This document shows, piece by piece, positions 16,195-54,241 of a stretch of DNA of 64,000 nt. The stretch is taken from the NCBI GenBank assembly GCA_030697165.1, contig JAUYQQ010000011.1, positions 124,001-188,000 of the forward strand. The letters are read 5' to 3'. Origin of the DNA: Acidobacteriota bacterium (GTDB lineage Bacteria; Acidobacteriota; Vicinamibacteria; Vicinamibacterales; UBA2999). The notes under the pieces are model-generated. The model was not told where the DNA came from and did not search any database. It was given only the letters and a program-made list of their open reading frames with translations. Numbering within the stretch: the stretch's first letter is position 1; the number at the start of each line of letters is the position of its first letter. A program made the translations under genes and the position numbers.

Positions 16195-17598
16195 GTGCGT
16201 TGTCTGGCGGTCTGTCACACGGAGTTGGTGGTCCGGCTCCTGGAGGCAGTCCTCACTCCGAACTCGGAGCTCGACGTCTTAGTGGAAAGCCGGGCGCTCG
16301 CCCGCCACTTCGAAGATTCGGAACTGCCGGTGTCGGTGGCCGATCCGGCGAGAGTCGACAGCTACGTCAAGGCGGGCCTGTCCCCTGTCACCCCGGTCTT
16401 TGTTGAAGATAACGGCCGCAAGGGCCTGCGCAAGGTGCTTGAAGCGTTGCGCGGCGCGGGCGGCACGCTCATCTACGTGCTGGGCACCAGCCTCGCCGAC
16501 GTGCGCCGTGCCGAAGAACTGCGCGACGACTTCCCCGAAGTGACGACCCTGACCCTCGCCGAGCTGCTCGGCCCCCCGCTGCTCAGCGAGTTGGGCCGTT
16601 CGGTGACCCGGCAGCGGGTCCAGCAGTACCAGCGCTACATGGCCGACGCCGACCGGGTGCTGATCCTCACGCACAACGATCCCGACCCCGACGCCTTGGC
16701 CAGCGGCCTGGCGCTGCGGACGATTCTCCGCCGCACGAGGCAAACCGCGGTGGTCGCCTGCCTCCAGCCGGTGACGCGGCCCGAGAACCTGCGGATGGTC
16801 AAGCTGCTGGACCTCAAGATCGAGACGATCACCCCCGACCAGTTCAAGGACTTCGACAAGATTGCGCTGGTCGACGTCCAGCCGCATTACTTCCCGGGGC
16901 TGCTGCCGCACGTCGATCTCGTGATCGATCACCACCCCGAGCAGCCGGGCTACAACGCCATTTTCAAGGACATCCGCCCCGACTACGGCTCGACCTGCAC
17001 GATCCTCACCGAGCACCTGCGCGCCGTCGACATGGATATCTCGGAGCGGACGGCGACGGCGATGCTCTACGCCATCAAGTCGGACACCCTGTTCTTCAAC
17101 CGTCACGCCAACCGCGCCGACCTCGACTCGTTCTCGCACCTGTACCCGCTCGCCGACTCCACGATGATCCGCAAGATGGAGGGCGCGGAAATCACCGCCG
17201 AGCGGCTCGACTACCTGATCAAGGGCTGGCAGCAGGGGCGCATGATGGAACACGTGTTCTGCGCGTTCCTCGGCGAGCCGCCGCGCGACGACTTCATCCC
17301 GTACGTGGCGGACTTCTACCTGCAGCTGGAGAACGTCCAGTGGACGGTGATCAGCGGCGTGGTGAACGACACCTTCGTGGTGTCGGTGCGCAACCTGGGC
17401 TACTCGCGTAACGCCGGCGACTTCGTGCGCCGCTGGTTCAACGACATCGGCAGCGCCGGCGGCCACCGCACCATGGCCAAGGCGGTGGTGCCGCTCGAGG
17501 CGTTCCAGAAGAAGTTCGGAACCTACGAAGGCAGCCGCATCAACCAGCGGATGCTGGAACTGGTGCTGGAGTTCCTGCACGAGACCCGGGACAAGTAA
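16195..17598 (+). CDS. DHH/DHHA1-family phosphoesterase with an extra N-terminal domain
   Basis: The 467-residue protein has a DHH domain from about residue 155: THNDPDPDALASG, ALVDVQP and VIDHHPEQPG. These are the metal-binding motifs of RecJ/NrnA-like phosphoesterases. A DHHA1 tail near 410 contains GSAGGHRTMAKA. Such proteins degrade short oligonucleotides or cyclic dinucleotide products. The first ~140 residues look like a Rossmann/RCK-type nucleotide-binding unit (ELDVLVES, GTLIYVLGTSLADV), an uncommon fusion. GTG 16195 is chosen as the only start consistent with the domain boundary. The stop is followed at once by a heptamer array. Confidence 0.82.
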   Translation: MRCLAVCHTELVVRLLEAVLTPNSELDVLVESRALARHFEDSELPVSVADPARVDSYVKAGLSPVTPVFVEDNGRKGLRKVLEALRGAGGTLIYVLGTSLADVRRAEELRDDFPEVTTLTLAELLGPPLLSELGRSVTRQRVQQYQRYMADADRVLILTHNDPDPDALASGLALRTILRRTRQTAVVACLQPVTRPENLRMVKLLDLKIETITPDQFKDFDKIALVDVQPHYFPGLLPHVDLVIDHHPEQPGYNAIFKDIRPDYGSTCTILTEHLRAVDMDISERTATAMLYAIKSDTLFFNRHANRADLDSFSHLYPLADSTMIRKMEGAEITAERLDYLIKGWQQGRMMEHVFCAFLGEPPRDDFIPYVADFYLQLENVQWTVISGVVNDTFVVSVRNLGYSRNAGDFVRRWFNDIGSAGGHRTMAKAVVPLEAFQKKFGTYEGSRINQRMLELVLEFLHETRDK

Positions 17599-17691
17599 CC
17601 AGTAGCCAGTAGCCAGTAGCCAGAAAGAGACGAGCACTTCTGGCATCTGGCTACTGGCTACTGGGATCTGGCTACTGGCATCTGGCTACTA
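17599..17691. repeat. Inverted heptamer array (CCAGTAG / CTACTGG)
   Basis: Arm 1 (17599-17623) is CCAGTAG repeated three times plus CCAG. A 16-nt spacer follows, then arm 2 (17640-17691) carries the reverse-complement unit (CTGGCTA, with CTGGCAT and CTGGGAT variants) about seven times. The whole fills the gap between the convergent DHH and PLP-enzyme genes and contains the TAG stop of the latter. It could fold into one long hairpin and act as a two-way terminator. Confidence 0.85.
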
Positions 17692-18863: not shown

Positions 18864-18970
18864 TAGCCACAGAGGACACAGAGGACACAGAGAAAACTCT
18901 TCTAAATGCGATCAAGCTTCGAGTGAGCTGACACGCCTTTCAAGAAGTCACTCTGTGTCCTCTGTGGCTA
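18864..18970. repeat. Inverted 9-nt array (CACAGAGGA)
   Basis: Arm 1 (18864-18892) is TAGC + CACAGAGGA x2 + CACAGAG. Arm 2 (18951-18970, CTCTGTGTCCTCTGTGGCTA) is its reverse complement, with a 58-nt spacer lacking a gene. Arm 2 supplies the TAG stop of the patatin-like gene at 18968. The spacer is visibly less G+C-rich and could also carry the promoter of the PLP-enzyme gene. Confidence 0.85.
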
Positions 18971-24268: not shown

Positions 24269-25984
24269 CTAAGGCACCGCGAAGCCGTGCACTTTACCCT
24301 TGCTGATCCCCGCCATCACCGCGATGTACTGCTTGCCCTCCAGCTCGTAGCTGATCGGCGTCGCGACGCCCTGGCCCAGCTGCGCTTCCCACAGCGTCTT
24401 GCCGCTCAGCGGATCGAGTGCGAAGAACTTGCCGCCCCCGTTGCCGACGAAGATCAGCTGCCCGGCCGTTGACAACGCGCCGCCGGCGGGCTGGAATGGA
24501 ATTTTCCACGCGGCCTTCTGCCCAACCGGATCCCACGCCACGAAGAAGCCGCCAGGAGGCGGCGCCTTCGGGTCTGGCGGAGGCGGCGGAACGGGCTTGC
24601 TGCCCGCGGGCGTGCCGCGGCGAATGCCGAGGTTCCACTGCCCTTCCTTGAACTCGAACTTCTCTTCCATCGCAAATGCCGAGCTGGTTTCCTGGCCAGG
24701 GTAATAAACGAGCCCCGTGGTCGGGTTGAACGCCATGGGCGGCCAGTGGTGCGCGCCGACGGGCGACGGCGACAGTCGCACCGGCGTGAAGCGGTAGCGA
24801 GCCGCCTCGGTTTCGATCGGCCGGCCGGTGTCCATGTTGATGGACGTCGCCCACGAGGTGTAGACGTACGGCGCGCCCGAGATCAGCTTGCCGGTGGCAC
24901 GATCCAGCACGTAGAAGAAGCCGTTCTTCGGCGCCTGCATCAGCACCTTTCGTACCTGCCCGGCAATGGTCAGGTCGGCCAGGATCATCGGCTGCGCCGA
25001 GTTGTAGTCCCAGTTGTCGCCGGGCACCGTCTGGTAATGCCACACGTACTTGCCGGTGTCGGCATTGAGCGCCACGATCGACGCCAGGTACAGGTTGTCG
25101 CCGCCGCCGGGGCTGCGGTGATTCGCGTTCCACGGCGAGCCGTTGCCCGTGCCGACGTAGACCAGGTTCAGCTCGGGGTCGTAGGCAATACCGTCCCACG
25201 GCGTGCCGCCGCCGCCGAACTTCCACCACTGGCCGGTCCAGGTCTTCGCCGCGGCCGCCATCGACTCGTCTTCGAAGGGCTTCGATGGATCGCCGGGAAT
25301 CACATACCACTTCCAGGCCTGCTTGCCGGTGGCGGCATCGTAGGCGGCCAGGAAGCCGCGCACGCCGTACTCGGCGCCGCCCTGCCCAATCACGACCTTG
25401 CCCTTGATGATGCGCGGGGCGCCGGTGATGGTGTAGTCGGTGCCGGGAGGGGTCGTTTGCACCGCCCACACCGGCGCGCCGGTCTCCGCATCCAGCGCGA
25501 CCAGGCGGCCATCAAGCAAGCCGACATAGATGCGACCGTCGTAGATGGCTGCGCCACGGTTCACCGGGCCGCAGCACGGGCGCGGCCCCATGGCGTCGAA
25601 GCCGCCGCGCACCAGTGCCGGGTCGTACTTCCACTTCACCTTCTTCGTGCGCAGATCGATGGCGTAGACCTGGCTCCAGGTTGACGTGCCGTAGAGCACG
25701 CCATCGAACACCAGCGGCGTGGTCTCGAGCTTGCCGTCCGACCCGACTTCGACCGCCCAGCTTTCCGCCAGCCTGGTCACATTGCTCTGATCGATCTGCT
25801 TGAGGGGACTGTGGTGCGTTTCCGCGTAATCGCGGCCGTAGCCGACCCAGTCGCCGTCGGCCGGCTTCAACAGGGTCGCATCGGTGACCTTCGGTGCCGC
25901 CTGTTGCCCCTGGAGGGCCGTAACCGCCACGCATCCAACCAGGCCGGCTGCCACCCAGCCCGCCCAACGCCTTGTCACGCTCAT
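24269..25984 (-). CDS. Periplasmic PQQ-dependent alcohol dehydrogenase, single-domain
   Basis: The 571-residue protein has a signal peptide ending ALQGQQ, then an eight-bladed propeller of the quinoprotein methanol/ethanol dehydrogenase type. PRPCCGPVNRG holds the adjacent-cysteine disulfide over PQQ and PGDNWDYNSAQP holds the catalytic Asp. The residue two after that Asp is Asn, not the extra Asp used for lanthanides in XoxF, so a Ca2+ site is inferred. No C-terminal cytochrome c domain is present (no CxxCH), so electrons need a separate acceptor. A Pro-rich loop (KPVPPPPPDPKAPPPGG) is inserted near residue 465. Confidence 0.9.
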   Translation of the reverse strand: MSVTRRWAGWVAAGLVGCVAVTALQGQQAAPKVTDATLLKPADGDWVGYGRDYAETHHSPLKQIDQSNVTRLAESWAVEVGSDGKLETTPLVFDGVLYGTSTWSQVYAIDLRTKKVKWKYDPALVRGGFDAMGPRPCCGPVNRGAAIYDGRIYVGLLDGRLVALDAETGAPVWAVQTTPPGTDYTITGAPRIIKGKVVIGQGGAEYGVRGFLAAYDAATGKQAWKWYVIPGDPSKPFEDESMAAAAKTWTGQWWKFGGGGTPWDGIAYDPELNLVYVGTGNGSPWNANHRSPGGGDNLYLASIVALNADTGKYVWHYQTVPGDNWDYNSAQPMILADLTIAGQVRKVLMQAPKNGFFYVLDRATGKLISGAPYVYTSWATSINMDTGRPIETEAARYRFTPVRLSPSPVGAHHWPPMAFNPTTGLVYYPGQETSSAFAMEEKFEFKEGQWNLGIRRGTPAGSKPVPPPPPDPKAPPPGGFFVAWDPVGQKAAWKIPFQPAGGALSTAGQLIFVGNGGGKFFALDPLSGKTLWEAQLGQGVATPISYELEGKQYIAVMAGISKGKVHGFAVP

Positions 25985-26014: not shown

Positions 26015-26280
26015 GGTCGGGCGGGTAGGGCTGGTCGGGCGGCGTCGGGCTGGTTGGCATTTCTCGAAACGCGTGGGTTACTTGAAGAGCGACGCTTGGA
26101 CGACAATCGACGTCGAAGTCCGCAAGACGGCGGCTCCGCTCCTGGGCCTCGCGAGGCAGCAGTCAAGCGCCCGCACCTGACGCTCCCACCCGCCGCACCA
26201 GCCCAACCCTACCAGCCCCACCTGCCTTGCCCGCCCTACGCCGCCCGACCAGCCCTACCCGCCCCACCTGCCCTACCAGG
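26015..26280. repeat. Large inverted 9-nt array (GGGCTGGTC / ACCAGCCCT type)
   Basis: The left arm (26015-26058) carries GGTCGGGCGGGTAGGGCTGG-like units. The right arm (26186-26280) carries reverse-complement units with period 9, such as ACCAGCCCT, ACCCGCCCC and ACCTGCCCT. The 127 nt between them hold no supportable gene. The right arm runs into the last codons and TAG stop of the esterase gene. The same unit set recurs at 27021, 27638 (inside mutL) and 52208. Everything between the PQQ gene start and 26272 is this element. Confidence 0.75.
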
Positions 26281-26989
26281 TAACTCCCGCAAGAAACTCG
26301 TTCAGGGCGGAGATCACAGTGTCCGGGACGTTGTGGCCGCCGTCGAACGGAACCCACGTGACGTTCAGGCCGGCCGCCTTGACCCGCGCCTGGAACCTCT
26401 CCATCGTCGCAAACGGCAGGACGCCGTCCCTGCGGCCGTGGGCAATGAAGACAGGCATCATCCGGCGGGCAGCGAACCCCTCGGCCCAGGCGGCCTCGTT
26501 CACGGTGGTGCCACCGAGCAGCACCAGCGCCGCCAACGGTTGATCGGTCTGGAAGGCAATCTCGGCACTGAGCATCGCTCCCTGCGAAAAGCCGCCGAGG
26601 ATCACCGCGCCCGGTTCCTTCTCGATCAGGTTGCGCACCAGCCGCGAGGCCACCTTGATGCCGCCCGGATTGGCCGTCGAGAAGTCAGGGAAACGTTGCC
26701 CCGCGGGAATGTGCCCTTCGATGTTGAGCCACCACCAGCCCCGCCCGCCCATTGGACCTCGCAGCGGACCCTGTGGCAGTACCAAGCGCCCCTGTTGCGG
26801 GACCTGGAGCGTGTGCTCGAACTGCAACCAGTCGCCGCCCCTCGAGCCGTAGCCGTGCAGCAACACGAGCGAGGGCGGCCCCTCGCCGCCGCGGACAATG
26901 GCGTCCAGGGGCGCGACCTGCAGCCATAGCCAGAGGCCGGACAGTGACACCGAGGCGACGAGAGCGAGCAGAAGTAGCCAGCGTTTCAT
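26273..26989 (-). CDS. Alpha/beta-hydrolase, carboxylesterase/phospholipase type, membrane-anchored or exported
   Basis: The 238-residue protein has an N-terminal hydrophobic segment (LLLLALVASVSLSGLWLWL). The hydrolase core follows: oxyanion region VLLHGYGSRGGDW, nucleophile elbow GGFSQGAML (Ser about 145), catalytic Asp in AHGRRDGVLP and His in DGGHNVP. This is the small carboxylesterase / lysophospholipase-like group. The natural ester is unknown. The extreme C-terminus FLAGVTW is partly encoded by the adjoining array. Confidence 0.82.
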   Translation of the reverse strand: MKRWLLLLALVASVSLSGLWLWLQVAPLDAIVRGGEGPPSLVLLHGYGSRGGDWLQFEHTLQVPQQGRLVLPQGPLRGPMGGRGWWWLNIEGHIPAGQRFPDFSTANPGGIKVASRLVRNLIEKEPGAVILGGFSQGAMLSAEIAFQTDQPLAALVLLGGTTVNEAAWAEGFAARRMMPVFIAHGRRDGVLPFATMERFQARVKAAGLNVTWVPFDGGHNVPDTVISALNEFLAGVTW

Positions 26990-27020: not shown

Positions 27021-27064
27021 CCTACGCTCCTGACCCGCCCGACCAGCCCTACCCGCCCTATCTA
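27021..27064. repeat. 9-nt array at the mutL 3' end
   Basis: CTGACCCGCCCGACCAGCCC-type units run from 27021 to the mutL stop (27062). It shares its unit with the arrays at 26015-26280 and 52208-52283 but is present in one orientation only. The rest of the mutL-esterase gap (26990-27020) shows nothing else. Confidence 0.65.
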
Positions 27065-28819
27065 GATCCTGTCGAAGTTCTTCTCGATCTCGCGACGGGT
27101 GATGCGCAACATCACCGGCCGTCCGTGGGGGCACACCGTCGAGTACGCGGTGGCGCGCAGCTCTTCGAGAATGTGATGCATCTTCTCGAGCGTCAGCGGG
27201 TAGTTGGCCTTGACGGCGGCGTGGCAAGCGGTAGTGGCCGCAATCTGCTTGATCGATTCCTCAAGTCGTAATCCGCGGTCGAGGCCTTCGAGGTCATCAG
27301 CCAGCGCGCGCAAAGCTGCCTCGCACTCATCGCGCGGCAGCAGCGCCGGCATGGCCGTCACCTTGATGCTGTCGCCGCCGAACTCCTCCACCTCGAAGCC
27401 GAACTTCGCCAGCGCCTCGGCTCGCGCAACCAGGGCATTGCGCTCGGCGGCCGGCAACTCGAGGATCATCGGCACCAACATGCCCTGGCTCTCGAGATTC
27501 TCGGTGGTGAGCCGCTGCATGATGCGCTCGAACAGCACGCGCTCGTGCGCCACGTGCTGGTCGATGATGCACAACCCCTCGTCGTCCATCGCGATGATGA
27601 AGGTGTCGCGGAACTGGCCGAGCGCGATCATGGGCCTTACGGCTGGTGGGGCAGGTTGGGCGGGTGGGGCCGGTAGGGCGGGTGCAACAGCCCCCCCACC
27701 AGCCCCACCAGCCTGACCCGCCCCGGTAGGCGCCCACCGGCTGGTAAAGCTCGCGCCAGCCAGCGCGCCGGGAATGGACGGCTGCAATGGCCGGCCCGCC
27801 AACACATCCGAGGTGTGAAGCGTCAGCTCGGGGGCGGGTCCTTTGCCGAGCGCATCGCCCAACGCGTGGCGCACCATCTGGTGCACCATCGACTGCTCGC
27901 GAAACCGCACCTCGGCCTTGGTCGGGTGCACATTCACGTCCACGCGGTCGGGCGGGATGTCGAGGAACAAGTGCACTTCGGGGCTGCGTTCCTTGTTGGT
28001 GGCGACGCTGTACGAATCCAGAATCGCGTGGGCGATCGTGCGGTCCTTCACGATCCGGCGGTTGACGAACACATGCTGGGGGCCGCGCACCGGGCCCTGC
28101 TCAGCCAGGGCGGCAATAAAGCCGTGCAGGCGCAGCCCCCCAAACTCGCGATCGACGGCGACCAGATCCTGGCGATCGCCGTAAAGCTGATAGAGCCGGT
28201 CCGACAAGCTTGCCACCGGCGGCACCGCCAGGACCTTCCGCCCGGTGCTGATCAGCGTGAAGCCGACCTCTGGGTAGCAAAGCGCCAGCTGCGTGACGAA
28301 CCGCGAGACCTGCGCGGCCTCGGCCGCGTCGGACTTCAGGAACTTCCGGCGCGCCGGCAGGTTGTAGAAGACGTCGGCGACTTCCACCAGCGTGCCTTCC
28401 GGGCCGCCCGACTCGACCACCGACTCGATAATGCCGGCGTTGACGCGGATCTCAGTACCGCTGTCGCTCCCCCGCGCGCGCGTGCGCAGGCGGAAATGCG
28501 ACACCGAGGCCATCGATGGCAACGCTTCCCCGCGGAACCCCAGGGTGACGATCGCGCCCAGGTCGTCGGCACGCTTGATCTTGCTGGTGGCATGGCGCTC
28601 GAGGCAGAGCCGCGCATCGTCCGGATCCATGCCGATGCCATCGTCCTCGACCCGAATCAGCTTCTTGCCGCCGTATTCCACGGTGATGGTGATTCGTGTC
28701 GCCTTCGCGTCGATGGCGTTCTCGATCAGTTCCTTGACGACCGAGGCCGGCCGCTCGACCACTTCACCGGCCGCAATCTGGTTGGCCAGGTCTTCGGGCA
28801 GACGCGTGATCCGGCCCAC
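27062..28819 (-). CDS. mutL: DNA mismatch repair protein MutL
   Basis: The 585-residue MutL has the GHKL ATPase N-terminus: IAAGEVVERPASVVKELIEN, DDGIGM, TLGFRGEALPS. Its C-terminal domain carries endonuclease-type motifs DQHVAHERVLFE, ACHAAV and CPHGRP, so it likely nicks DNA as in most bacteria without MutH. The linker near residues 365-395 is a Gly/Ala/Pro stretch encoded by a tandem array. GTG 28819 is the start because IxRLPxDLxNQIAAGEVV begins there. It overlaps the corA stop by one base (TAGTG). Confidence 0.94.
   Translation of the reverse strand: MGRITRLPEDLANQIAAGEVVERPASVVKELIENAIDAKATRITITVEYGGKKLIRVEDDGIGMDPDDARLCLERHATSKIKRADDLGAIVTLGFRGEALPSMASVSHFRLRTRARGSDSGTEIRVNAGIIESVVESGGPEGTLVEVADVFYNLPARRKFLKSDAAEAAQVSRFVTQLALCYPEVGFTLISTGRKVLAVPPVASLSDRLYQLYGDRQDLVAVDREFGGLRLHGFIAALAEQGPVRGPQHVFVNRRIVKDRTIAHAILDSYSVATNKERSPEVHLFLDIPPDRVDVNVHPTKAEVRFREQSMVHQMVRHALGDALGKGPAPELTLHTSDVLAGRPLQPSIPGALAGASFTSRWAPTGAGQAGGAGGGAVAPALPAPPAQPAPPAVRPMIALGQFRDTFIIAMDDEGLCIIDQHVAHERVLFERIMQRLTTENLESQGMLVPMILELPAAERNALVARAEALAKFGFEVEEFGGDSIKVTAMPALLPRDECEAALRALADDLEGLDRGLRLEESIKQIAATTACHAAVKANYPLTLEKMHHILEELRATAYSTVCPHGRPVMLRITRREIEKNFDRI
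27638..27726. repeat. Inverted 9-nt array inside the mutL linker
   Basis: GGCTGGTGGGGCAGGTTGGG-type units on the left face CCCACCAGCCCCACCAGCC-type units on the right, as an inverted pair. They use the same unit family as the arrays at 26015, 27021 and 52208. Read in the mutL frame they encode the low-complexity linker (GQAGGAGGGAVAPALPAPPA). The 9-nt period keeps the frame open. Confidence 0.7.
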
Positions 28820-29784
28820 TACCACCACCCCGACTTGCGGAACCACGCGAACAGCCCGGCGCTCGACAGCATCATCACCAGGATGATCTCCCAGAACAGC
28901 CACTCAGGCCGGCCGAAGAACGTCGGCAACGGCACGTTCATGCCGAACAACCCGGTGATCACGGTCATCGGACCGAACAGCGTGGCGATCACGGCCAGCA
29001 CTTTCGAGACGTCGGCCAGGCGATTGGAGACGCTCGCCAGGTGCGCATCGAGAATGCCGGTGACCCGATCGTGAAACATGATGCCGTCGTCCGCCATGCG
29101 CGCGAACTGATCGTAGACGTCCCGGAACCGGTAGGCCATTTCCTGGTTGATGATCTCGAACTCGCGCCGGGCCAGCCGCCCCACCGCATCGCGCTGCGGC
29201 ACCAGGATGCGCCTGAGCGCCGTGATGTCGCGCTTGATGGCCAGGATGTCGCCGACCGTGGCGGACGCCGTGTCCTCAATCACGCGATCTTCGATGTCGT
29301 TGAGCCGCTCTTCGACCTCATCCACTTCCGGCCGGTAGTGGTCAACCATGGTGTCCACAATCCGGTGAAACAGCGCGACCGGGCCTTCGGCCAGCACGTG
29401 GTCGGTCCGGCCGCACAGCTCGCTGACGTGCTCGATGCTGCGCCGCTTGCCGTCGTGCACGGTGACGAGGAAGTTGGCGGAAAGAAAGAAGTCGGTTTCG
29501 TGCGTCTCGAAGCGATGCTCCGCGGCATCGAAGTTGATGCCGTGCAGCACGACGTACAGATACTTGCCGTAGCTTTCAACCTTCGGGCTGGTCTCGCGCT
29601 GCACCGCCGCCTCGACAGCCAGCGGGTGGAGGCCGAAGTCGCTTCGCAGGACCTCGGCGTCCGCCTCCGTGGGTTCACTGACATCCGCCCACACCACGAC
29701 CTCGCTGCCAGAGGCGAGCCAGGCCGGGTCGAGGCGGTCGACCTGTTCGGTGCAACCGCCTCGGTGGACGAAGTAGCGAATCAA
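28819..29784 (-). CDS. corA: CorA-type magnesium/cobalt transporter
   Basis: The 321-residue protein has a long cytoplasmic funnel domain (helices around VDHYRPEVDEVEERLNDIED) and two C-terminal helices. The selectivity motif GMN is in GLFGMNVPLPTFF. TTG 29784 (LIRYFVHRGG) is preferred because it overlaps the ppdK stop as TTGA and gives family length; the longer frame upstream is inside ppdK. It sits between ppdK and mutL in a tightly coupled chain. A second Mg2+ transporter, MgtE, is 7 kb upstream on the same strand. Confidence 0.9.
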   Translation of the reverse strand: MIRYFVHRGGCTEQVDRLDPAWLASGSEVVVWADVSEPTEADAEVLRSDFGLHPLAVEAAVQRETSPKVESYGKYLYVVLHGINFDAAEHRFETHETDFFLSANFLVTVHDGKRRSIEHVSELCGRTDHVLAEGPVALFHRIVDTMVDHYRPEVDEVEERLNDIEDRVIEDTASATVGDILAIKRDITALRRILVPQRDAVGRLARREFEIINQEMAYRFRDVYDQFARMADDGIMFHDRVTGILDAHLASVSNRLADVSKVLAVIATLFGPMTVITGLFGMNVPLPTFFGRPEWLFWEIILVMMLSSAGLFAWFRKSGWW

Positions 29785-32579
29785 TCCCCGACCTTGACGC
29801 TCAGCGCGGCCTGTGCCGCCGCCAGCCGCGCCACCGGCACGCGGTACGGCGAGCAGCTCACGTAGTCGAGGCCGACCTGGTGGAAGAAGTGGATCGACGA
29901 GGGATCGCCGCCGTGCTCGCCGCAAATGCCGAGCTTCAGCGACGGGTTGGCGACGCGGCCCTTGGCCACGGCCATGGCGACGAGCTGGCCCGTGCCGGCG
30001 GCATCGAAGGTCGCAAACGGATCGCGCTCCAGGATCTTGCGATCCTGATAGACCCGCAGGAACTTGCCGACGTCATCGCGCGAGAACCCGAAGGTCATCT
30101 GGGTCAGGTCGTTGGTGCCGAACGAGAAGAACTCGGCCTCCAGCGCCACCGCGTCGGCGGTCAGCGCGCCCCGCGGCACTTCGATCATGGTGCCGACCAG
30201 GTACTTGATCTTGATGCCCTGCTCCTTGAGCACCTGCCCCGCCACGCGGTGGACCACGGCCTTCTGGTCGCGCAACTCGCGCACGTCGCCGACCAGCGGA
30301 ATCATGATCTCGGGGACGATCTTCAGCCCCTCCTTGTTGAGCTTGCAGGCCGCTTCCATGATGGCGCGGGTTTGCATTTCAGTGATCTCGGGATAGGTGA
30401 TGCCGAGACGCACGCCGCGGTGGCCGAGCATGGGGTTGAACTCGTGCAGCTGCTCGACGCGCGACAGCAGCGCCTTCTTCTCTTCCAACTCCTTGCCCTT
30501 GACGCCCTTGGTCTCCAGTACGGCGACCTCCACCATCAGGTCCTCGCGCTTGGGCAGGAACTCGTGCAGCGGCGGGTCAATGGTGCGGATGGTCACGGCC
30601 GTGCCCTTCATGGCCTTGAACACGCCGTAGAAGTCCTCGCGCTGCATCGGCAGCAGTTCGTCGAGCGCCGCGCGACGATCGGCCTCGGTCTCGGCGAGGA
30701 TCATCCGCTGGACGATGGGAATGCGGCCTTCGCCGAAGAACATGTGCTCGGTGCGGCACAATCCGATGCCTCGGGCGCCGAAGGCATAGGCGATCTCGGC
30801 CTGATCCGGCTGGTCGGCGTTGGCGCGCACGCCCAGGCGGCGGAACCGATCGGCCCATTCGAGCAGCGTGTGGAAGCGCTGGTAGATCGGCGAGTCGGCC
30901 GGCTTCATCTTGCCGGCAATCACCTGCAGGATCTCGCTCGGCTGTGACGCCACCTTGGCGAGCTTGACCTCGCCCGACAGGCCGTCGAACGCGACGTAGT
31001 CGCCCTCTTTGACGGTCTGGCCGTTGACGGTGAACGACTTGCCATGCTCGTTGATGCGCAGTTCGCCGGCGCCGACAATCGACGGCTTGCCCATCTGGCG
31101 ACCGACGACGGCGGCGTGAGAGGTCATGCCGCCGGTGGCGGTGAGAATGCCCTGCGACACCCACATGCCATGAATGTCGTCGGGCACCGTTTCACGACGG
31201 ACCAGGATGACCGGCTCGCCCTTGTTCGACCACTCGACCGCGGTCTCCGACGAGAACACCGCCTTGCCGCACGCCGCGCCGGGTGAGGCCGGCAAACCGC
31301 GCGTCACGACCGCAATGCTCTTCCATTCCTTCTGGTCGAAGCCGGGCGCGAGTAACTGCGACAGCGCTTCCGGATCGACCAGCAGGATCGCTTCCTTCGG
31401 CGTGACCAGCTTCTCTTTCGCCATGTCCGTGGCAATCACGACCGCGGCGTAGCCGGTGCGCTTGCCGCTGCGCGTCTGCAGCATGTACAGCGTCTCGTCC
31501 TGGATGGTGAACTCGAAGTCCTGGATGTCTTTGTAGTTGCGCTCGAGGCGCGTGGTGATGTCGCGCAGCTGCTTGTACGCCTTGGGCATCACGCGCTCGA
31601 GTTCCTTGATCGGCTGCGGCGTGCGAATGCCGGCGACCACGTCCTCGCCCTGCGCGTTGATCAGGAACTCGCCGAAGAACTCCTTGGCGCCGGTGGCGGG
31701 ATTACGCGTAAAGCCCACGCCCGTGCCCGAGCGATCGCCGGTGTTGCCGAACACCATCATCTGCACGTTGACGGCGGTGCCGATCGAGTCCGGGATGTCA
31801 TAGATGCGGCGGTATTCCTTCGCCCGCGCGTTGTTCCACGATCGGAACACGGCGTTGCGCGCGCCGCGCAACTGCTCCATCGGGTCCTGCGGGAACGGCT
31901 TCTTGGTCTTGTCCTTGACGATCTTCTTGAAGGCCGCTACGACCTCGCGCAGGGCCGTCTCGTCCAGGTCGGTATCCATCTGCGCGCCCTTGGCGTGCTT
32001 GACGGCTTCGAACTCGTGCTCGAACGCTGCCTTCGGAATCTCGAGCACGACGCTGCCGAACATCTGCATGAAGCGGCGATAGCTGTCGAAGGCAAAACGG
32101 CCGTTGCCGGTCCACGCCTTCAGGCCCTCGACAGTATCGTCGTTCAGGCCGAGGTTGAGAATGGTGTCCATCATGCCGGGCATCGAAAACTTCGCGCCCG
32201 ACCGCACCGACACGAGCAGCGGCTTCTTGGCCGACCCGAGGGTGGCCCCGGCCGCCTTCTCGAGCTTGCGCAGCTCCTTGACCATCTCGGTCTCGATGTT
32301 CGCCGGCAGCTTGTTGCCGCTCGCGGAGTAGATGTTGCAGGCATCAGTGGAGATGGTGAACCCGGCCGGCACCGGCAATCCGGCCCTGGTCATCCCGGCC
32401 AGGCCCGCGCCCTTGCCGCCGAGCGTGTCCTTCATCGACCGATCGCCGTCAGCCTTCCCGTTGCCGAAGAAATACACGAATTTCTTGCTGGTGCCTCGGG
32501 TGCCTTTGGTGCCTCGGGCCGTCTTCGTGGCCTTGGTGACCTTCTTCTTCGCGTCCTTCGTGGTTCTCTTCTTCGCCAT
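29781..32579 (-). CDS. ppdK: Pyruvate, phosphate dikinase
   Basis: The 932-residue enzyme interconverts pyruvate + ATP + Pi and PEP + AMP + PPi. Order of domains: an ATP-grasp region from about residue 33 (FVYFFGNGKADG, GGKGAGLAGM), the swivelling phospho-His domain (GGMTSHAAVVGRQMGKPSIVG shortened around TSHAAV), and the PEP-binding barrel with FGTNDLTQM and GICGEHGGDP. The first 32 residues (rich in Lys, Thr, Arg) are an extra basic tail ahead of the family start and are encoded by 9-nt repeats. It lies 9 nt after glyS. Confidence 0.95.
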   Translation of the reverse strand: MAKKRTTKDAKKKVTKATKTARGTKGTRGTSKKFVYFFGNGKADGDRSMKDTLGGKGAGLAGMTRAGLPVPAGFTISTDACNIYSASGNKLPANIETEMVKELRKLEKAAGATLGSAKKPLLVSVRSGAKFSMPGMMDTILNLGLNDDTVEGLKAWTGNGRFAFDSYRRFMQMFGSVVLEIPKAAFEHEFEAVKHAKGAQMDTDLDETALREVVAAFKKIVKDKTKKPFPQDPMEQLRGARNAVFRSWNNARAKEYRRIYDIPDSIGTAVNVQMMVFGNTGDRSGTGVGFTRNPATGAKEFFGEFLINAQGEDVVAGIRTPQPIKELERVMPKAYKQLRDITTRLERNYKDIQDFEFTIQDETLYMLQTRSGKRTGYAAVVIATDMAKEKLVTPKEAILLVDPEALSQLLAPGFDQKEWKSIAVVTRGLPASPGAACGKAVFSSETAVEWSNKGEPVILVRRETVPDDIHGMWVSQGILTATGGMTSHAAVVGRQMGKPSIVGAGELRINEHGKSFTVNGQTVKEGDYVAFDGLSGEVKLAKVASQPSEILQVIAGKMKPADSPIYQRFHTLLEWADRFRRLGVRANADQPDQAEIAYAFGARGIGLCRTEHMFFGEGRIPIVQRMILAETEADRRAALDELLPMQREDFYGVFKAMKGTAVTIRTIDPPLHEFLPKREDLMVEVAVLETKGVKGKELEEKKALLSRVEQLHEFNPMLGHRGVRLGITYPEITEMQTRAIMEAACKLNKEGLKIVPEIMIPLVGDVRELRDQKAVVHRVAGQVLKEQGIKIKYLVGTMIEVPRGALTADAVALEAEFFSFGTNDLTQMTFGFSRDDVGKFLRVYQDRKILERDPFATFDAAGTGQLVAMAVAKGRVANPSLKLGICGEHGGDPSSIHFFHQVGLDYVSCSPYRVPVARLAAAQAALSVKVGD

Positions 32580-41557: not shown

Positions 41558-41592
41558 GGCACCTCAGGCACGCGAGGCACCTGAGGCACCCT
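41558..41592. repeat. 9-nt array after aspS (GCACCTCAG unit)
   Basis: Units GCACCTCAG, GCACGCGAG, GCACCTGAG and GCACCC, period 9, with CCTCAGG/CCTGAGG able to pair. It ends five bases before the aspS stop. Confidence 0.65.
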
Positions 41593-45840: not shown

Positions 45841-45924
45841 GGGAACCGGCAGTCGGCAGTCGGGAGTCGATCCGAAAAGCGAACTCCCGGCTCCCGACTC
45901 CCGACTCCCGACTCCCGGCAGGTT
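45841..45924. repeat. Inverted heptamer array (AGTCGGG / GACTCCC)
   Basis: The left arm (45841-45869) has GGCAGTC, GGCAGTC and GGGAGTC units. After ~13 nt the right arm (45883-45918) has CTCCCGG and CTCCCGA x3 units, the reverse complement. It fills the dcd-ndk gap and ends one base before the ndk stop. Confidence 0.85.
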
Positions 45925-50294: not shown

Positions 50295-52208
50295 ATGGTT
50301 CTCGATTCCAAGACGCCGAGCGGCCCGATTGGCGACAAGTGGGACCGCCGCAAGTTTGAAAACAAGCTGGTCAACCCGGCCAACCGCCGCAAGTTCCAGG
50401 TGATTGTCGTCGGCACGGGCCTGGCGGGCGCCTCGGCGGCGGCCTCGCTCGGCGAACTGGGCTACCCGGTGAAGGTGTTCGGCATTCACGACAGCCCGCG
50501 CCGCGCCCACAGCATTGCCGCCCAGGGCGGCATCAACGCCGCCAAGAACTACCGCAACGACGGCGACAGTATCTATCGCCTGTTCTACGACACCATCAAG
50601 GGGGGCGACTACCGCGCCCGCGAAGCCAACGTGTATCGGCTGGCCCAGGCGTCGGTCAGCATCATCGACCAGTGCGTGGCCCAGGGCGTGCCGTTTGCCC
50701 GCGAGTATGGCGGCCTGCTCGACAACCGCTCGTTCGGCGGCGCCCAGGTGTCGCGCACCTTCTATGCGCGCGGCCAGACCGGCCAGCAACTGTTGCTCGG
50801 CGCCTACCAATCGATGATGCGGCAGGTGGATGCCGGCACGGTCACGCTCTACCAGCGCCGCGAGATGCTCGACCTGGTGGTCGTCGACAACCAGGCTCGA
50901 GGCATCGTGTGCCGCAACCTGGTGACCGGCGAGCTCGAGTCGCACACCGCCGACGCCGTGCTGCTCTGCACGGGCGGATACGGCACCGTGTTCTACCTGT
51001 CGACCAACGCGGTGAACTCCAACGTGACGGCCGTCTGGCGCGCGCACAAGAAGGGCGCGTTCTTCGCCAATCCCTGCTTCACGCAGATTCACCCAACCTG
51101 CATTCCGGTCAGCGGCGATCACCAGTCGAAGCTGACGCTGATGTCTGAAAGCCTGCGCAACGACGGCCGCGTGTGGGTACCGAAGTCACAAGGCGACAAG
51201 CGCCCGCCCGCGCAGATTCCCGACGCCGAGCGCGACTACTACCTCGAGCGGCGCTACCCGGCGTTTGGCAACCTGGTGCCACGAGACGTGGCCTCGCGCG
51301 CGGCCAAGGCCGTCTGTGACGAGGGCCGCGGCGCCGGCGACTCGGGCCTGAGCGTCTACCTGGACTTCGCCGACGCCATCAAGCGCAGCGGCGTTGACAC
51401 CATCAAGGCGCGCTACGGCAACCTGTTCGACATGTACACCCGGATCACGGACGAGAACCCGTACCAGGTCCCCATGCGCATCTACCCGGCCGTGCACTAC
51501 ACGATGGGCGGCCTGTGGGTGGACTACAACCTCCAGTCCACCATTCCCGGCCTGTTCGTGTTGGGCGAGGCCAACTTCTCGGACCACGGCGCCAACCGCC
51601 TGGGAGCCAGCGCGCTGATGCAGGGCCTGGCCGACGGCTATTTCGTGGCGCCCTACACGGTGGCCAATTACCTCGGCGGCGCGACGCTGGCGCCAGTGGC
51701 GGCCTCGCACGACGCGTTCGGCGCCGCCCAGGCCGACGCACAGGCCCGCATCGACAAGGTGCTGCAGGTCAAGGGCAAGCGCACCGTCCGCGAGTTCCAC
51801 CGAGCGATTGGCGCCATTTGCTGGGACCACGTCGGCATGGCGCGCACCGAAGCCGGGCTGTCGGGCGCGATCAGCCAGATTCGCACCCTGCGCGACGAGT
51901 TCTGGCAGGACGTCACCGTGCCGGGTGCCCCCAACAACCTGAACCCGGGCCTCGACTACGCCGGCCGCGTGGCCGACTACATGGAGTTTGCCGAAGTGCT
52001 GGCGCTCGACGCCCTCGAACGGCGCGAGTCGTGCGGCGGCCACTTCCGCGAAGAGTTCCAGACCCCCGACGGCGAGGCGCTGCGCAAAGACGACGAGTTC
52101 TCGTATGTGGCAGCGTGGGAGTTCAAGGGCGTCGGTGCCCGGCCCGAGCTTCACAAGGAACACCTGGTATTCGAAGAAGTGCATCCGACGCAGCGGAGCT
52201 ACAAGTAG
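50295..52208 (+). CDS. sdhA: Succinate dehydrogenase flavoprotein subunit
   Basis: The 637-residue subunit has the FAD site [20 protein letters not shown], the histidyl-FAD region [23 protein letters not shown], and the catalytic Arg region [11 protein letters not shown]. It oxidises succinate. Length and sequence fit the type B complex II that pairs with a single five-helix anchor. The TAG stop is followed at once by a tandem array. Confidence 0.96.
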
Positions 52209-52283
52209 GGGCGGGTAAGGCTGGTGGGGCTGGTGAGGCTGGCAGGGGCACCCGCCCGACCTGCCCGACCCGCCCGACCAGCC
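52208..52283. repeat. Inverted 9-nt array between sdhA and sdhB
   Basis: GGGGCGGGTAAGGCTGGTGG-type units face CACCCGCCCGACCTGCCCGA-type units. It uses the same unit family as 26015, 27021 and 27638. It separates sdhA from sdhB within one operon, so a folded RNA here could change their ratio. Confidence 0.75.
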
Positions 52284-52296
52284 AAAGGTTTCTTAT

Positions 52297-54128: not shown

Positions 54129-54211
54129 TGTCCTTACAGGAGATCAAGAGATCACGAGATCAGCAACTTCCGAAAACCAAATCACAAGATCACAAAATCA
54201 CCAGATCACCA
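54129..54211. repeat. 8-nt array (AGATCAC unit) in the serA leader
   Basis: GAGATCAA, GAGATCAC, GAGATCAG, then AAGATCAC, AAAATCAC, CAGATCAC and similar. It is in one orientation and is the one array that lies upstream of a gene rather than at a 3' end. Confidence 0.75.
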
Positions 54212-54241
54212 AAGACAAGATATTATAGCCACTCCCAACAC

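What the first reader, a model, noticed from the sequence alone, without database searches (positions are those of the whole stretch)
26015..26280. Four sites sharing one G+C-rich 9-nt unit, including a 266-bp inverted array
The units at 26015-26280, 27021-27064, 27638-27726 and 52208-52283 are recognisably the same family (ACCAGCCCT/ACCCGCCCG/ACCTGCCCT), three within 1.7 kb and one 24 kb away. The same unit appears in intergenic, operon-internal and coding contexts, so the element seems to move or be copied between sites.
Basis: seen in the sequence. Interest (0 to 1): 0.5.

Follow-up and report, generated by a model that had tools for sequence, protein, structure and literature searches.

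The report
Spreading nine-base repeats in an acidobacterium
A nine-letter, partly variable DNA word is repeated in short runs at about fifty places in this bacterium's genome, often right behind stop codons or inside genes without breaking them, and the sister genomes compared mostly lack it, or carry a different word, at the same places.

Summary
The window has four arrays of one unit, GGGC-N-GGT-N / ACC-N-GCCC-N ("F1"): 10 exact two-unit matches, 0 in controls. The genome has 73 exact three-unit hits (control 0), in at least 48 loci. F1 is patchy in the order (24 of 149 genomes) and nearly absent elsewhere in the phylum. Of 48 loci 25 lie inside ORFs, in frame, mostly as x-A-G or P-A-x linkers (MutL, MetRS, TilS, Der, E2, ABC-F), in codons the genome rarely uses, so the unit is imposed at DNA level. 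Intergenic arrays often touch a stop codon. Where two arms face each other the G-rich arm comes first (17 of 17 loci); such pairs fold into strong hairpins. At orthologous places in sisters F1 is absent in 17 of 18 comparisons; several of those gaps carry arrays of other 7-9-nt units. So arrays come and go at preferred sites. Whole-array copying is not shown for F1 (it is for another small family in this genome). No reverse transcriptase was found; the Y1-transposase loci examined have no F1 beside them. Closest known: GGGNATC heptamers of Xanthomonas and Nostoc. New variant of a known kind; how arrays are seeded is unknown.

The parts
26015..26054 (-). F1 arm, G-rich on +, first arm of the inverted pair, in the gap upstream of the PQQ-dehydrogenase gene (24269-25984, -)
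   Evidence: gap without F1 in the 4 sisters with both flanks (G026, G071, G133, G150)
26190..26279 (+). F1 arm, C-rich on +, overlapping the stop end of the Abhydrolase_2 gene (26273-26989, -): G-rich on that gene's sense strand
27021..27061 (+). F1 arm of three exact units (27033-27058), 3 nt from the mutL stop, G-rich on the mutL sense strand
   Evidence: absent in 5 of 5 sisters with both flanks
27638..27726 (.). F1 inverted pair in frame inside the linker of mutL (27062-28828, -), residues 369-396, between DNA_mis_repair (220-327) and MutL_C (403-543); encodes GAGQAGGAGGGAVAPALPAPPAQPAPPAV
   Evidence: folded RNA z -5.27
52208..52284 (.). F1 inverted pair filling most of the sdhA-sdhB gap, first unit directly after the sdhA TAG stop
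   Evidence: G026 has GGTGCCTNG units here, G083 a short other repeat, G015 no gap; z -2.43
17594..17690 (.). same architecture, other unit: heptamer CAGTAGC/GCTACTG inverted pair filling a convergent gap
   Evidence: AACCAAT-type inverted array in G071 at the same gap, by eye other repeats or plain hairpins in G063, G083, G150, 8 nt in G026; z -5.85
45849..45919 (.). same architecture, other unit: GGGAGTC/GACTCCC heptamer inverted pair between genes of one strand
   Evidence: z -6.10
54138..54216 (.). 8-nt AGATCACA-type array; related sequence of 42 nt in G083 and 77 nt in G015
32490..32518 (-). second nonamer family (GGTGCCTNG, 'F2' here), in frame near the start of the pyruvate phosphate dikinase gene 29781-32579; not seen in the 6 sisters with both flanks
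41558..41591 (.). second nonamer family (GGCACCTCA), intergenic; absent in G083 and G015

Best explanation
F1 is a lineage-restricted, dispersed short-unit tandem repeat of the same kind as the GGGNATC heptamers of Xanthomonas and Nostoc, but with a 9-nt unit that keeps the reading frame. Shown: a genome-wide unit with six near-fixed, one mostly fixed and two free columns; arrays of 3-8 units here (up to 13 in relatives); G-arm-then-C-arm order where two arms face each other; placement at stop codons or, in frame, in loops and linkers; absence or replacement by arrays of another unit in sister genomes. Inferred: new arrays are seeded at tolerated sites by a host process that needs no element-encoded protein (most likely template switching or repair synthesis between repeat-rich sites), then lengthened and shortened by slippage, partly in two-unit (18-nt) steps, while selection removes arrays that damage promoters, start sites or folded domains. 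The effect on the host is probably small: hairpins between operon genes and longer Ala-Gly or Pro-Ala linkers. What keeps most columns fixed while two stay free is not explained.
For: Dispersal. Lineage restriction: 24 of 149 genomes of the order; 9 of 396 of the phylum, only 2 of them outside the order, with 1 and 4 hits, the second also with 4 control hits. Placement: of 48 loci 25 coding, 17 between genes of one strand, 3 divergent, 3 at contig edges; distance 0 or -1 nt to a stop at L018, L019, L041, L045, 52209 and 26211. DNA-level origin of coding arrays: in x-A-G arrays Gly is GGT, which is 8.7% of Gly codons in the C15 sample; unit column 1 is A in 134 of 137 coding units. In-frame gain: 13 extra residues in a loop of L015 against 8 of 8 sister proteins of 41-89% identity. 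Unit turnover at one site: sdhA-sdhB; a gap with F1 in G015 and GGTGCCTAG units in G000; the mutL linker. Local growth: in four other genomes neighbouring units agree more than in a pooled shuffle (column 4, 87 of 159 against 63.4; column 9, 78 against 59.1), in G000 only column 9 (77 of 194 against 65.3). Two-unit step in G000: column 9 agrees more at lag 2 (z 2.9) and less at lag 1 (z -2.1); column 4 z 1.7 and -1.5; elsewhere lag 2 z 1.7 for both.
Against: Simple slippage from one seed should give near-identical neighbouring units and mutations in all columns; in G000 column 4 agrees between neighbours no more than at random (76 of 194 against 74.2), while the fixed columns differ in few units (in part by construction, because arms were picked by matching those columns). 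F1 arrays share no haplotypes between loci, so no direct trace of copying exists for this family. The stop-codon strand rule holds for F1 (8 of 9 within 15 nt, counted by eye) but not for all array families together (12 of 18 G-rich against 83 of 138 ordinary stops). Two arrays lie 6 and 26 nt upstream of a start codon on the 'wrong' strand (L025, L049). Reversed-pattern control hits are not zero everywhere: 5 in G015, 2 in G123, 1 in G090.
Confidence: 0.55

Rival explanations
1. F1 units are binding sites. A DNA- or RNA-binding host factor reads GGGC-N-GGT-N, and selection keeps the read columns while columns 4 and 9 drift freely; arrays are operators, nucleoid sites or mRNA 3'-end stabilisers.
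For: Two free columns among fixed ones, in coding and noncoding arrays (column 4 does not differ between the two, p 0.31; columns 8 and 9 differ slightly, p 0.015 and 0.029). Constant G-first order. Strong hairpins in the inverted pairs (z -2.4 to -8.6).
Against: F1 absent at the same sites in most sister comparisons, so the sites are dispensable; arrays in unrelated genes; the same gaps carry other units in relatives; sister genomes with no or few hits (G026, G063, G133 0; G071 1; G083 2).
Confidence: 0.15
2. Non-autonomous elements moved in trans by REP-associated Y1 transposases (RAYT/TnpA-REP).
For: All 11 genomes with 8 or more F1 hits have Y1_Tnp genes, against 85 of 138 others (one-sided Fisher p 0.006; cut-off chosen after the fact, two families tried).
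Against: None of 20 Y1_Tnp loci from 8 genomes has an exact two-unit F1 match within about 2.5 kb; 13 of the 20 come from genomes that carry F1 (7 are from G026, which has none), and they are 3 of 6 such genes of G000 and 4 of 5 of G015. By eye several lie between inverted sequences or REP-like palindromes of their own.
Confidence: 0.1
3. Arrays written by a reverse transcriptase from a short RNA template with mutagenised adenines (as in diversity-generating retroelements): the template GGGCAGGTA would have A exactly at the two free columns.
For: The G strand of F1 has no A at a fixed column, and in G131, G057 and G104 A is the commonest base at column 4 of the G strand.
Against: No RVT_1 match in G000; 2 of the 11 F1-rich genomes have one. 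Other array families have fixed A columns (GGGATCA).
Confidence: 0.04
4. Ordinary low-complexity protein linkers and terminator hairpins that resemble each other by base composition or codon usage.
For: Many coding arrays sit in linkers, where Ala/Gly/Pro repeats are common.
Against: Same DNA unit inside and outside genes, with codons the genome avoids (GGT 8.7%, GCT 3.2%); 73 against 0 reversed controls. Repeats that I read as collagen-like T-G-P, which give the same pattern in viral contigs, have G at column 4 (19 of 24 stretches), rare in F1 (16 of 252 units in G000).
Confidence: 0.04

Closest known systems
GGGNATC / GGGGA(C/T)T heptamer repeats of Xanthomonas and Nostoc (PMC4692102; abstract and four sections read)
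   Same: G-rich short unit with variable positions; dispersed at many loci; tandem units; convergent inverted pairs; position near the upstream stop on the sense strand; function unknown
   Different: F1 unit is 9 nt and also lives in frame inside ORFs (25 of 48 loci against 7-11% intragenic in Xanthomonas); sister sites mostly lack F1 (17 of 18) where 83% of Xcc repeats are found in the same context in Xac; several unit families coexist in one genome and replace each other at the same gap
Tandem repeats of Borg elements (PMC9879509; start of abstract and passages seen)
   Same: 43-65% in ORFs, frame-keeping units there, disordered regions, fast turnover
   Different: Borg units are perfect; F1 is one degenerate unit shared across a chromosome, with inverted pairs
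TAACTGA heptamers of Beggiatoaceae (PMC4679880; start of abstract and passages seen)
   Same: One short unit in many intergenic sets, found in distant groups, some overlapping stop codons
   Different: Related to the start codon downstream, one indirect repeat only, not G-rich
Cyanobacterial STRR and small dispersed repeats (Elhai and co-workers 2008; recalled, not held)
   Same: Heptamer arrays and tiny dispersed elements, some nested
   Different: Not compared here
Rickettsia palindromic elements (recalled; only a search listing seen)
   Same: Small repeats tolerated in frame inside conserved genes
   Different: Recalled as single palindromes of about 100-150 bp, not tandem nonamers
REP/REPIN with RAYT transposase (search listings)
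   Same: Short dispersed intergenic hairpins
   Different: Tandem nonamers; no F1 next to the 20 Y1_Tnp loci looked at

Membership tests
GGGNATC-type G-rich repeats | dispersed tandem arrays of a short G-rich unit with conserved G-tract and free positions | tested here: met
GGGNATC-type G-rich repeats | convergent inverted pairs (G-rich arm first) | tested here: met
   20 arm pairs at 17 loci G-first, 0 C-first; the loci of other genomes were hand-picked, some because hits on both strands were listed
GGGNATC-type G-rich repeats | heptamer unit | tested here: not met
   9-nt unit; GGGANTC and GGGATCA heptamers exist elsewhere in the same genome
GGGNATC-type G-rich repeats | about 90% intergenic | tested here: not met
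   25 of 48 inside ORFs
GGGNATC-type G-rich repeats | next to the stop codon, G-rich on the sense strand | tested here: met
   8 of 9 F1 arrays within 15 nt of a stop, counted by eye, L044 (read as a signal peptide) left out; small number; not significant over all families
GGGNATC-type G-rich repeats | same loci kept in close relatives | tested here: not met
   F1 present in 1 of 18 comparisons, plus a contig-edge case in G015 mutL and one shared coding site with G071
GGGNATC-type G-rich repeats | G-quadruplex formation | not testable with these tools
   G-tracts present; needs CD spectroscopy
REP/RAYT | elements flank the Y1 transposase gene | tested here: not met
   0 of 20 loci with an exact two-unit F1 match, 13 of them from F1-bearing genomes
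REP/RAYT | 20-40 bp palindrome with GTAG-type foot | tested here: inconclusive
   one single-arm array does not fold (z 0.67) but inverted pairs do; GTAG arises in the array whenever column 9 is A on the G strand; no foot was tested
Retroelement-written repeats (DGR, retron) | reverse transcriptase in the genome | tested here: not met
   RVT_1 absent from G000, present in 2 of 11 F1-rich genomes
Borg-type tandem repeats | perfect repeats | tested here: not met
   degenerate unit shared by 48 loci
Cyanobacterial STRR/SDR | unit and nesting rules of the original description | not tested
   paper not held

The most novel reading that the evidence does not exclude
These genomes possess an unrecognised process that writes or polices short DNA words: each lineage keeps its own lexicon of 7-9-nt, often G-rich units with fixed and free columns, places them as inverted pairs at gene ends and (if the length is a multiple of three) in protein linkers, and exchanges one word for another at the same site. 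In the window's genome the free columns of F1 differ between loci, and between facing arms, as if drawn anew, which plain copy-paste does not give; a sequence-reading factor or a degenerate-templated synthesis would remain to be found.
Probability: 0.16. Interest if true: 0.75.

Novelty: new variant of a known kind. Interest (0 to 1): 0.5.

Why it matters
It shows a DNA-level repeat entering conserved housekeeping proteins without breaking them, and gap sites that stay hot while the unit changes between sister species. That makes an old puzzle, where bacterial heptamer-type repeats come from and why they sit behind stop codons, testable with closely related genomes.

Tried and rejected
Rejected: (1) fold-back origin of inverted pairs: in 20 arm pairs the variable columns of the arms match no better than shuffles (lowest p 0.124). 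(2) Whole-array copying of F1: longest shared haplotype 7 symbols against a null mean of 7.3. (3) Reverse transcriptase: RVT_1 absent from G000. (4) RAYT: associated across genomes but no F1 beside the 20 Y1_Tnp loci looked at. (5) A strand rule at stops for all array families: not significant. (6) Phage carriage: 24 viral stretches match four units; 19 of 24 have G at column 4 and read to me as collagen-like T-G-P repeats, 5 have other units. (7) Known RNA families: only two tRNAs in the window. (9) Literature: the listings showed no description of this unit or of such arrays in Acidobacteria; subscription journals are mostly not held.

What was left out of counts: F1 arms of fewer than three units in register (so 26015-26054 is not in the arm table); two-unit sites beyond the first 100 of 139 listed, so 48 loci is a lower bound; in the sdhA-sdhB survey 30 loci (the best of 138 matching genomes) were read, the sdhA stop was located in 24 of 30, and arrays were judged by eye; gene calls come from my own codon model, checked by Pfam on 18 of the 25 array-bearing proteins plus MutL and neighbours; L037:6646 is a weak F1 case that stays in the 48.

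Full report
What was checked. The four sites of the finding exist. The unit is best written GGGC-N-GGT-N (other strand ACC-N-GCCC-N); I call it F1. The exact two-unit motif occurs 10 times in the window and never in the reversed window or in 50 Markov resamplings. In the whole genome (5.39 Mb, 23 contigs) three exact units occur 73 times against 0 for the reversed pattern and two units 139 times against 4. The '266-bp array' is really two arms around about 135 bp without units.

Which organism. F1 occurs in 24 of 149 genomes of the order, very unevenly (110, 80, 73, 42, 30 and 24 hits in the richest, 0 in 125), and G026, G063 and G133 of the same genus have none; the reversed pattern hits 3 of 149 genomes (5, 2 and 1 times; the 5 in G015). 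Of 396 genomes of the phylum 9 match; only two lie outside the order, with 1 and 4 hits, the second with 4 control hits too.

Anatomy. I read about 307 kb around F1 sites of this genome, 18 hand-picked F1 loci of four relatives, and an unbiased 400 kb of contig C15. In G000 there are 58 arms of three to eight units in register, in 48 loci; other genomes reach 13 units. Column counts over 252 units: columns 1, 2, 3, 5, 6, 7 are 97-100% fixed, column 8 85% (31 of 38 exceptions C to T), while column 4 is C 123, A 93, T 20, G 16 and column 9 is C 123, T 67, G 32, A 30. The fixed columns look somewhat better than they are, because arms were picked by them. Where two arms face each other within 260 nt the order is always G-rich arm then C-rich arm: 20 arm pairs at 17 loci in five genomes, none the other way (binomial p 1.5e-5 for 17 loci). 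The arms are not copies of each other in columns 4 and 9. As RNA the inverted pairs fold better than shuffles (7 of 7 pairs tested, two of them heptamer pairs, z -2.4 to -8.6); the one single arm tested does not (z 0.67).

Placement. With a codon-model gene caller, 25 of 48 loci are inside ORFs, 17 between genes of one strand, 3 between divergent genes, 3 at contig edges. Six arrays touch or overlap a stop codon (distance 0 or -1 at 52209, 26211, L018, L019, L041, L045). Of nine F1 arrays within 15 nt of a stop, eight are G-rich on the sense strand (counted by eye; p 0.02). For all short-unit arrays of C15 together this rule is not significant: 12 of 18 against 83 of 138 control stops.

Inside genes. 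In all 15 loci classed G-sense the peptide is x-A-G; of the 10 loci classed C-sense, 7 show P-A-x and 3 another frame. The proteins are ordinary: MutL, and, among 18 others scanned against Pfam, TilS, Der/EngA, methionyl-tRNA synthetase, a 2-oxoacid dehydrogenase E2, two ABC-F-like ATPases, a P-type ATPase and a serine/threonine kinase. Several arrays fall between annotated domains: MutL 369-396 between domains ending at 327 and starting at 403; MetRS 547-566 before the tRNA-binding domain (579-670); TilS 249-259 between 204 and 425; E2 73-164 between the lipoyl (2-71) and catalytic (171-399) domains, though a weak E3-binding match (104-136) lies within. Two lie inside a domain match (L012 residues 65-75, L050 residues 99-115). 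The unit is imposed at DNA level: Gly is read as GGT, 8.7% of Gly codons in the C15 sample, and Ala often as GCT (3.2%); column 1 is A in 134 of 137 coding units. Column 4 has the same composition in coding and noncoding arrays (p 0.31); columns 8 and 9 differ slightly (p 0.015, 0.029).

Gain and loss. Both flanks of the four window F1 sites could be matched in 18 site-by-sister comparisons; F1 is there in one (a degraded array in the G083 mutL linker) and absent in 17. In G015 the mutL contig ends inside an F1-like linker. In a MutL tree the five closest genomes form a supported clade in which three carry the linker array and two do not; a single origin is not ruled out. The L015 gene (FG-GAP repeats) has 13 extra residues, about the length of its array, that 8 of 8 sister proteins lack (41-89% identity). 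One coding array (L029) has an F1 counterpart in G071.

The unit is not the constant; the place is. The sdhA-sdhB gap carries F1 in G000, GGTGCCTNG nonamers in G026, GGGATTC heptamers in G089, other short inverted arrays in several more (for example G009, G007, G139), and is 36 nt or less without an array in 12 of the 30 loci read (by eye). A gap next to L015 carries F1 in G015 and an inverted GGTGCCTAG array in G000, both close behind the stop. The convergent gap at 17594-17690 has CAGTAGC heptamers in G000, AACCAAT heptamers in G071, plain hairpins in G083 and G150, and 8 nt in G026. The mutL linker of G071 and G063 holds repeats of other units.

A lexicon of units. In 400 kb of C15, 40 clusters of period 6-10 were found against 0 in one Markov-resampled copy; 28 are intergenic. 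Families seen in G000 include GGTGCCTAR (9 nt), GGGATCA and GGGAGTC (7), GTGATTTG (8), CACGGAAA (8), AAGTTGA (7) and CTGGCTA (7). For the AAGTTGA family a 33-nt core recurs with 0-1 mismatch at five separate loci and never within 5 mismatches in the reversed sequence, inside matches of 66-84 bp at 87-94% identity: direct evidence that some of these elements are copied.

Mechanism. For F1 in G000 there is no haplotype sharing between loci; neighbouring units agree at column 4 no more than at random and at column 9 slightly more (p 0.03), with a weak two-unit periodicity (column 9, lag 2 z 2.9). In the four other genomes neighbours agree clearly more than in a pooled shuffle, as local growth would give. 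I therefore favour seeding at tolerated sites by host repair or template switching, then length change in one- and two-unit steps, with selection deciding where arrays survive. These steps are inferred. A reverse transcriptase is unlikely (RVT_1 absent from 9 of 11 F1-rich genomes, G000 included). Y1 transposases are present in 11 of 11 F1-rich genomes and 85 of 138 others, but none of 20 such loci, 13 of them in F1-bearing genomes, has F1 near it. The fixed and free columns remain unexplained; Xanthomonas heptamers likewise show high conservation at positions 1-4 and 6.

Known relatives. The nearest described kind is the GGGNATC repeat of Xanthomonas and Nostoc: inverted pairs, a place behind stops on the sense strand, no known function. 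F1 differs by its 9-nt unit, its life inside ORFs, its poor conservation between sisters and its coexistence with several other unit families. I file it as a new variant of that kind, not as a member.

Noticed in passing
L012:2711-2793, L050:6162-6244, L211:19443-19525, L222:13480-13545, L028:4628-4697: AAGTTGA-type element with a non-periodic 33-nt core, copied to five separate loci with 0-1 mismatch in the core; a very small mobile element candidate.
   Followed up: partly
L010:3811-3870 (TilS gene): A GGTGCCTGA nonamer array followed by a GTCCGGCTTCAGCCGGAC palindrome lies in frame inside tilS; the other rows of the alignment are shorter there (6 sisters, one of them poorly aligned).
   Followed up: partly
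L036:1565-1670 and 1960-2091, L039:3493-3535: A REP-like palindrome GTCCGGCTNNAGCCGGAC adjoins nonamer arrays at several places.
   Followed up: no
L021:10699-10790 and L043:1-152: Two contigs of the assembly end in F1 arrays next to poly-C or poly-G, as if hairpins break the assembly.
   Followed up: no
L230, L231, L237: Y1 transposase (RAYT-like) genes lie between complementary inverted sequences of roughly 20-25 nt (by eye).
   Followed up: no
L032:1936-2072, L221:9212-9387, L227:4304-4474: Another dispersed repeat of about 140-175 bp, GC-rich with internal inverted parts, 78-86% identical.
   Followed up: no
L093, just upstream of the SdhB match (MAG titled Mucilaginibacter): ATCTCAA-type heptamers sit in the gap before sdhB in a Bacteroidetes record too (by eye).
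   Followed up: no
window 18868-18892: CACAGAGGA nonamer x2.8 upstream of a minus-strand gene; a similar CACAGAGGACACAGA stretch in G150.
   Followed up: no
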